From positions 1-32,832 of the forward strand of contig JALWMP010000174.1 in NCBI GenBank assembly GCA_026996165.1: 32,832 bases of DNA, read 5' to 3'. Under the pieces are notes generated by a model. It had not been told where the DNA came from and ran no database searches. It saw only the letters and a program-made list of their open reading frames with translations. Positions 838-1,282 of this stretch are shown here, in pieces (positions within the stretch are counted from its first letter, which is position 1; the number at the start of each line of letters is the position of its first letter). The stretch comes from Campylobacteraceae bacterium. GTDB lineage: Bacteria > Campylobacterota > Campylobacteria > Campylobacterales > Sulfurovaceae. Made by a program: the position numbers and the translations under genes.

Positions 838-1155
838 AAACCTGAGTTCTACGGAATACCATATCCACAAAAGCCTAAAAATAGGTAAGATTTTCAAAAT
901 CAAATTTGCAGGACTAGCTGTAGCTAATTCAAAAATTTTATTTTGGGAAGATTACCTATTTTTAGGCTTCCCTACGGGTTTTACGAGGTTTCCCATATGC
1001 TTAGATAGATTTTTTTGGTAAAACTCCACAACGAAGTGAGGACAATTAACTAGTTAGTCCTGCAAAAATCTATCGTTGCCTATGCAGTGCTTTGCACTCT
1101 CTTCGAGAAAAACCTCGTAAAATTGTGGATATGGTATTCCGTCGAACTCAGGTTT
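838..1155. repeat. 318-bp nested inverted-repeat element (MITE-like or structured RNA)
   Basis: The outer arms 838-870 and 1123-1155 are 33-bp inverted repeats with one mismatch. Inside are a perfect 18-bp pair (871-888 with 952-969), a perfect 13-bp pair (979-991 with 1110-1122, directly abutting the right outer arm), an 11-bp pair (1004-1014 with 1064-1074) and small hairpins (1086-1098). A TTAA occurs at both borders (836-839 and 1155-1158), compatible with a target-site duplication. No transposase or credible ORF is inside. The layout fits a miniature inverted-repeat transposable element or a multi-branched structured RNA. Confidence 0.75.
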
Positions 1156-1282
1156 TAATATACTCACTACAATACTGATATTATCATAATTTTTCTGTAG
1201 AGATTAGTAAAAGATTATAAGTAACACAAAAAAAACACAATTTTACTCTATTATCAGACCATTTAATCTAAAGGATATTAAT

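What the first reader, a model, noticed from the sequence alone, without database searches (positions are those of the whole stretch)
838..1155. Compact element of nested inverted repeats with no coding capacity
Outer 33-bp arms with one mismatch enclose an 18-bp perfect hairpin arm pair, a 13-bp pair stacked on the outer stem, and further short hairpins. The layout is an outer stem opening into several branches, more regular than AT-rich chance would give, with TTAA at both borders. It could be a MITE or a mobile structured RNA.
Basis: partly seen in the sequence, partly recalled or inferred. Interest (0 to 1): 0.62.

Follow-up and report, generated by a model that had tools for sequence, protein, structure and literature searches.

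The report
Mobile hairpin element with swappable ends
The 318 bases are one copy of a small, gene-less jumping DNA found in about a third of sampled genomes of one bacterial order; its folded centre is conserved while its ends match those of different, unrelated transposons, which suggests one core that several kinds of transposase can move.

Summary
Window 839-1154 (316 bp, flanked by the 3-bp duplication TTA) is a non-coding inverted-repeat element with a branched fold (z = -15).

It is one member of a large family. Copies are dispersed in the window's genome, an exact empty site exists in a relative, and a covariance model finds the core in 121 of 399 genomes of the order (34 of 87 genera). 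The core is always about 224 nt and folds into a four-way junction. 72 of 81 pairs show compensatory change and 97% of cells are paired.

Two results go beyond an ordinary MITE:
1. The outer 14-18 bp belong to unrelated transposon types, each with its own duplication length. One type matches IS982-family ends (3 bp), one matches IS5-family ends (4 bp), and one is flanked by TA, with no donor found. Two types coexist in one genome.
2. Each of the two large hairpins folds better on its own, opposite strand in all 92 copies tested. The element is two inverted, strand-specific hairpins, not a single one-strand RNA.

Best reading: a structured non-autonomous transposon with exchangeable ends, moved by resident IS transposases. 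What the hairpins do is inferred. No match was found in Rfam, plasmids, phages or the papers searched.

The parts
839..1154 (+). whole element (316 bp; core orientation +); the 267-bp form is the commonest full-length relative of this end type
   Evidence: BLAST copies, alignment of 32 copies; cmsearch R1 core match 861-1132 +, 163 bits
836..838 (.). left copy of the 3-bp target-site duplication TTA
   Evidence: flank comparison; empty site in relative G026 reads CTCTTTAATATACTCA
1155..1157 (.). right copy of the 3-bp target-site duplication TTA
   Evidence: as above
839..852 (+). left terminus of IS982 type (AACCTGAGTTCTAC; consensus AACCTGAGTTCGAC)
   Evidence: same 14 bp end a 1038-bp IS982-family element with 3-bp duplication in relative G030 (L324) and a broken one in the same genome (L229)
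1141..1154 (-). right terminus of IS982 type (GTCGAACTCAGGTT on +)
   Evidence: as above
839..870 (+). 5' arm of outer stem P1 (32 bp)
   Evidence: P1 is about 30-32 bp in all end types
1123..1154 (+). 3' arm of outer stem P1
871..969 (+). hairpin H1, which folds better on the + strand; conserved tandem GA/GA internal loop (AGAT/AGAT)
908..932 (+). conserved apical motif of H1 (GCAGGACTAGC-TGTA-GCTAATTCAA)
   Evidence: alignments A1, A3
970..978 (+). mini-hairpin CCCTACGGG at the junction (CCC/GGG nearly invariant)
979..1122 (-). hairpin H2, which folds better on the - strand; inverted homologue of H1
1044..1063 (-). apical motif of H2, the same motif as H1 read on the - strand (GCAGGACTAACTAGTTAATT)
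1018..1043 (+). 26-nt insert in the H2 loop (GTAAAACTCCACAACGAAGTGAGGAC); in L002, L005 and L068 the same module sits inverted at the equivalent point of H1
   Evidence: alignment of copies
1084..1106 (+). 23-nt double-hairpin insert between H2 and the outer stem (GCAGTGCTTTGCACTCTCTTCGA)
   Evidence: alignment of copies

Best explanation
It is a non-autonomous DNA transposable element (MITE-like) made of a conserved, structured ~224-nt core bounded by short terminal repeats that different IS transposases recognise. SHOWN: it inserted as DNA, with duplications of fixed length for each end type. The window's end type is that of IS982-family elements (3-bp duplication); another end type is that of an IS5-family element (4 bp); a third is flanked by TA. 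One homologous core carries all of them. INFERRED (likely): resident or visiting IS transposases move the element in trans, and the core has changed its ends several times and passed between host families. INFERRED (less certain): the core's two inverted hairpins each act as single-stranded nucleic acid on their own strand. A read-through transcript entering from either side, or the 5' strand exposed at either end during transposition or replication, therefore shows the same hairpin first. I favour the transcript version: an orientation-independent RNA hairpin that a host factor binds or processes, letting copies persist between genes in either direction. About 0.8 for the transposon-with-exchangeable-ends part; about 0.45 for action in RNA and about 0.3 for action in single-stranded DNA.
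For: Multicopy and dispersed in own genome and in many relatives. Empty site. Duplications: 23 of 30 copies exactly 3 bp (AACCTGAGTTC ends; one of the 30 is misassigned), 23 of 39 exactly 4 bp (GGGCACCTCTAA ends), 22 of 32 TA on both sides (TTACCGCACC ends). IS982 link: 1038-bp IS in G030 with AACCTGAGTTCGACA...TGTCGAACTCAGGTT-type ends and TTT duplication; broken IS982 with the same ends and ATA duplication in the window's own genome. IS5 link: IS with GGGCACCTCTAAAAACCC ends, CTCT duplication, DUF772 + DDE_Tnp_1 transposase. Two end types in complete genome G063. Covariation: 97.2% cells paired, 72 of 81 pairs with two-sided change, 0 of 500 shuffles, slid controls at most 48%; 29 of the 30 strongest covarying column pairs are in the structure. 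Strand rule: H1 better on + and H2 better on - in 92 of 92 copies and 20 of 20 clusters, p = 2e-6 each; same with DNA parameters, 89 and 92 of 92. Orientation to neighbouring genes is balanced, 23 against 25. Core tree: host families intermixed, F2 and F6 ends in more than one place.
Against: No intact matching transposase was seen in the window's genome (incomplete, 86.6%) or in several well-assembled carriers; G063 has no DDE_Tnp_1 match at all. Only the outer 14-18 bp are shared with the ISs. The IS5-type donor was found only in a viral contig from elsewhere. No donor was found for the TA-flanked type. The number of end exchanges is not firmly fixed by the tree: one origin of the F2 and F6 ends is not excluded by well-supported branches. 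There are no expression data, so the hairpin function is inference.
Confidence: 0.75

Rival explanations
1. Ordinary IS-derived MITE family: an internally deleted IS whose interior has no function. Structure and compensatory changes come only from hairpin-templated correction of palindromic DNA (arms copied from each other).
For: TIRs, TSDs and small size are standard for MITEs; matching two-sided changes also occur in P1; palindromes in DNA are known to be corrected arm to arm (own knowledge).
Against: Templated correction would remove internal loops and wobble pairs, yet the GA/GA loop, the U.G pair and the apical motif persist across 20 divergent clusters and several end types. The interior is shared between elements with unrelated ends, and the core length is held near 224 nt. 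The strand rule needs selection on one strand.
Confidence: 0.15
2. A single structured non-coding RNA gene (one strand) that happens to be mobile.
For: Very strong covariation, no Rfam match, four-way junction of constant size.
Against: H2 is worse on the strand where H1 is good in every copy. Orientation to genes is balanced. No promoter above chance in the window copy.
Confidence: 0.08
3. REPIN-like element: a pair of inverted hairpins mobilised as single-stranded DNA by a Y1 (RAYT) transposase.
For: Two inverted strand-specific hairpins per element.
Against: Six of sixteen carrier genomes tested, all 1-contig, have no Y1_Tnp match although they hold the element, and 10 of 14 non-carriers do have one. 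No conserved tag at the hairpin base. Terminal repeats and target duplications point to DDE-type insertion.
Confidence: 0.05
4. Remnant or satellite of a single unidentified autonomous transposon whose ends diverged, so the different end types are one evolving family.
For: End types largely follow the core tree; no donor found for the TA-flanked type.
Against: Duplication lengths differ (2, 3, 4 bp), a property of the transposase. Two end types match ISs of different families.
Confidence: 0.1

Closest known systems
Bacterial MITEs in general (RUP, NEMIS/Correia, Nezha, QMITE; review PMC10969869)
   Same: small, AT-rich, no coding capacity, TIRs, target duplications, stem-loop transcripts predicted, mostly intergenic
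   Different: those are tied to one parental IS; here one conserved structured core is found with ends of several unrelated transposon types
MITECca01 of Cardinium, derived from an IS982-family element (PMC9769881)
   Same: about 240 bp with IS982-type inverted repeats, presumably moved by the parental IS
   Different: described there as derived from its parental IS; no core shared across end types or hosts is reported in the passages I read
REP/REPIN and GTAG/CGTC palindromes (PMC3733652, which lists Sulfurovum)
   Same: inverted pair of single-strand hairpins, intergenic, multicopy
   Different: 20-40 bp units with GTAG or CGTC tag and, for GTAG, Y1 transposases; no TIR with fixed duplication; Y1_Tnp is absent from several carriers here
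Mobile structured RNAs (group II intron derivatives, HEARO/omega RNA; own knowledge)
   Same: conserved branched fold in a mobile unit
   Different: no protein, no Rfam match, DNA-type insertion, hairpins kept on opposite strands

Membership tests
MITE (non-autonomous DNA transposon) | short, no coding capacity | tested here: met
   mostly 262-342 bp, stops in nearly all frames
MITE (non-autonomous DNA transposon) | terminal inverted repeats | tested here: met
MITE (non-autonomous DNA transposon) | target-site duplication and empty sites | tested here: met
MITE (non-autonomous DNA transposon) | ends match an autonomous IS able to act in trans | tested here: met
   IS982 for the window's type; IS5 for a second type; not found for the TA type; action in trans itself is not testable here
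MITE (non-autonomous DNA transposon) | interior derived from or specific to the parental IS (common in MITEs, not strictly required: foreign interiors are allowed) | tested here: not met
   same core with several unrelated end types; only 14-18 terminal bp shared with the ISs
REPIN/REP | Y1 (RAYT) transposase in the genome | tested here: not met
   absent from G147, G249, G344, G430, G372, G168, all carriers
REPIN/REP | GTAG or CGTC tag at hairpin base | tested here: not met
   hairpin bases vary freely between clusters
REPIN/REP | two inverted single-strand hairpins | tested here: met
known Rfam RNA family | match above the family's gathering score | tested here: not met
   none in the window; no credible match at relaxed threshold
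single-strand structured RNA | all helices preserved on one strand | tested here: not met
   H2 favours the - strand in 92 of 92 copies

The most novel reading that the evidence does not exclude
The core is an independent genetic parasite: an orientation-independent pair of strand-specific hairpins that survives by repeatedly acquiring the terminal repeats of whatever IS family is active in its host, so that it is moved by unrelated transposases (IS982, IS5, a TA-targeting one and others) and its conserved hairpins act on a host factor in RNA or single-stranded DNA.
Probability: 0.45. Interest if true: 0.85.

Novelty: new variant of a known kind. Interest (0 to 1): 0.74.

Why it matters
MITEs are usually viewed as decayed ISs, each tied to its parent. 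A structured core conserved across an order, with ends from transposases of different families, would be a mobile element defined by its core instead of its ends, and evidence that something in the core is worth keeping. It gives concrete tests: do two unrelated transposases move the same core, and does the strand-specific hairpin matter in RNA or in DNA? In practice it is a common unannotated repeat in these genomes (at least nine full-length and several shorter copies in the window's genome, about 20 or more copies of one type in G063) that may break assemblies and lies next to many genes.

Tried and rejected
Coding function: no open frame is kept, and the near-constant inserted length of 270 (element plus duplication) is not kept strictly. 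Rfam family: none. Autonomous copies with the same termini at IS distance in G024, G021, G055, G063, G110, G040 and others: none by exact 11-12-bp pattern; the spaced pairs in C29 and C137 of the own genome enclose host genes, so they are truncated copies. DDE_Tnp_1 hits in carriers: only the broken IS982 next to copy L002 carried the termini. Donor of the TA type: 20 solo ends fetched, all truncated or complete elements, no transposase seen. Tertiary pairing between the H1 and H2 loops (their motifs are complementary): no convincing covariation beyond the secondary structure, apart from 54/69 inside H1. Plasmid and phage collections: no match; core motif in viral contigs: none. A search of another phylum was not possible, so absence elsewhere is untested apart from the exact 18-mer of the window's own end type, whose non-Campylobacterota hits look like chance. 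First impression that + strand G.U pairs prove a + strand RNA was withdrawn after splitting by hairpin.

Full report
OBSERVATION. Inverted arms 835-870/1123-1158 (36 nt, 94%), 871-907/933-969, 979-991/1110-1122 and smaller ones were recovered. The 318 nt fold at -139.9 kcal/mol against -64.8 +/- 5.0 for dinucleotide shuffles, z = -15.2; the other strand gives z = -14.0. Exact borders from copies are 839-1154, flanked by TTA on both sides.

MOBILITY. A search of the window's own genome (1.86 Mb, 192 contigs) returns nine full-length copies (79-100% identity), several shorter forms and many copies cut by contig ends. An exact 18-mer of the end finds further copies in MAGs titled Campylobacteraceae and Nitratifractor; a few chance-like hits in other phyla lack the rest of the end. 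Relative G026 has the left flanking DNA running straight into the right flank without the element: it reads CTCTTTA-ATATACTCA where the window has CTCTTTA-[element]-TTAATATACTCA. G011 also has both flanking genes without it, but its insertion point is too diverged to read. In this end type the commonest full length is 267 bp; 293, 316 and 342 bp forms carry inserts of 23-26 nt in loops; forms of 122-215 bp are deletions.

ONE CORE, MANY GENERA. BLAST with the 267-bp form hits 49 of 120 relatives, and in distant genera only the interior aligns. Those distant copies have wholly different outer arms but the same fold, with a four-way junction in which P1, H1, a CCCNNNGGG mini-hairpin and H2 abut with almost no unpaired base. 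In 13 divergent copies, 66 of 82 predicted pairs show two-sided changes. A covariance model (R1) finds the core in 121 of 399 genomes of the order, 34 of 87 genera, scoring about five candidates per genome. In a wider draw of the phylum all matches stay in that order. Nearly all hits span model positions 1-224, and core length is mostly 221-228 nt.

STRUCTURE IS UNDER SELECTION. On 92 aligned copies 97.2% of pair cells are standard pairs; 72 of 81 pairs have two-sided changes; 0 of 500 shuffles reach any of the measures; sliding the partner by 1-3 columns drops pairing to 38-48%. The alignment was fitted to the model, so some lean is expected, but an unguided covariation ranking puts 29 of its top 30 pairs in the structure. 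Loops are conserved: the AGAT/AGAT tandem-GA loop, the apical GGACTA...TAATTC motif and the CCC/GGG mini-hairpin.

THE STRAND RULE. H2 is an inverted homologue of H1. Wobble pairs sit on the + strand in H1 (weighted G.T 68, A.C 9) and on the - strand in H2 (5 and 20). Folding each hairpin and its complement, H1 is more stable on + in 92 of 92 copies and 20 of 20 clusters (mean 12.6 kcal/mol); H2 is more stable on - in 92 of 92 and 20 of 20 (mean 7.2); Wilcoxon p = 2e-6 each. DNA parameters agree, 89 and 92 of 92. The model was built on the + strand, so it cannot have caused the H2 result. The element is thus end - hairpin > < hairpin - end. This argues against one RNA being the unit. Orientation relative to neighbouring genes is balanced (23 same-direction, 25 opposite among tandem settings) and 79 of 94 sites lie between predicted genes (a crude ORF caller).

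THE ENDS BELONG TO DIFFERENT TRANSPOSONS. Copies sort by end sequence, and duplication length follows the end type. AACCTGAGTTCGA: exactly 3 bp in 23 of 30 (one of the 30, L153, is misassigned). GGGCACCTCTAA: exactly 4 bp in 23 of 39. TTACCGCACC: TA on both sides in 22 of 32. Smaller groups have AGGCGACTCCAA, GAGACCACTGCACAG and AGACTTCTTGCA ends. In the window's own genome an AACCTGAGTTC element sits in a broken IS982-family gene (NF033520, E = 6e-19), and that IS has the same ends and a 3-bp duplication, ATA. In G030 a 1038-bp IS982-family element has AACCTGAGTTCGACA...TTGTCGAACTCAGGTT ends and duplication TTT; in G092 a 957-bp one has nearly the same ends. A viral contig holds an IS5-family element (DUF772 + DDE_Tnp_1) with GGGCACCTCTAAAAACCC ends and a 4-bp duplication, CTCT. 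So the element shares 14 bp with IS982 members and 18 bp with the IS5 member, and nothing further inward was recognisable. P1 is nonetheless about 30-32 bp in every type. Complete genome G063 holds many copies of both the 4-bp and the TA types.

TREE. On a tree of 124 cores without P1, end types cluster (8 changes for 6 types; 5 is the minimum; shuffles average 61). F5 (GAGACC) is one clade, F3 (TTACCG) is one clade apart from two rows mis-scored by motif matching, and F2 (GGGCACC) and F6 (AGACTTC) each occur in more than one place, although starred branches do not exclude single origins. Host families f1, f6, f9, f16 and f20 are intermixed, which suggests transfer between hosts. End exchange is therefore supported by the different end types on one core, but the count of events is loose.

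MECHANISM. Shown: DNA-type insertion with type-specific duplications, and structure kept by compensatory change with a strand rule. Inferred: movement in trans by IS982-, IS5- and other transposases; acquisition of new ends by recombination or nested insertion with ISs (L229 shows one such nesting). The symmetric hairpins suggest a device that works whichever way it is read. I favour read-through transcripts, because most copies lie within tens of bases of genes and direction does not matter; single-stranded DNA during transposition or replication is the main alternative. Minimal P1-only palindromes (22-55 bp) with duplications occur in G024 and G055, so the core can be lost after or before insertion.

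KNOWN OR NOT. No Rfam family, no plasmid or phage match, and no paper found on such an element in these bacteria (open-access papers only). The closest are MITEs (PMC10969869), the IS982-derived MITE of Cardinium (PMC9769881) and REP-type palindromes (PMC3733652). REPIN membership fails: several carriers have no Y1 transposase.

LIMITS.

Noticed in passing
window 1018-1043 and 1084-1106; L002, L005, L053, L068: Small 23-26-nt modules are inserted at fixed points in hairpin loops; one occurs inverted at the equivalent point of the other hairpin, and L053 carries a related module in both arms of H2, as if hairpin units themselves had been copied in.
   Followed up: partly
L106 (G080:C64): The left terminal repeat (GAGACCACTGCACAGTATAAGCACCCATA) is present twice in tandem.
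   Followed up: no
L290, L291, L292, L293: Tiny palindromes of 22-55 bp made only of the outer stem; at least two (L290, L293) are still flanked by a 4- or 3-bp duplication.
   Followed up: partly
L163, L165, L167, L168, L169, L171: Remnants beginning AGACTTCTTGCA lie just downstream of TATAAT-like sequences and upstream of start codons, so element ends may have become 5' untranslated leaders.
   Followed up: no
L004 (G000:C138) and L040 (G011:C165): The same insertion with identical element and 98.4% identical 3-kb flanks in two genomes that are 81-91% alike elsewhere: recent transfer of the region or a binning mix-up.
   Followed up: partly
L061 around 542-900: Other long palindromic repeats (for example around CAATGAATTAA and TTCATTGGCATTGG) lie next to a truncated copy; a second unrelated repeat family may be present.
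   Followed up: no
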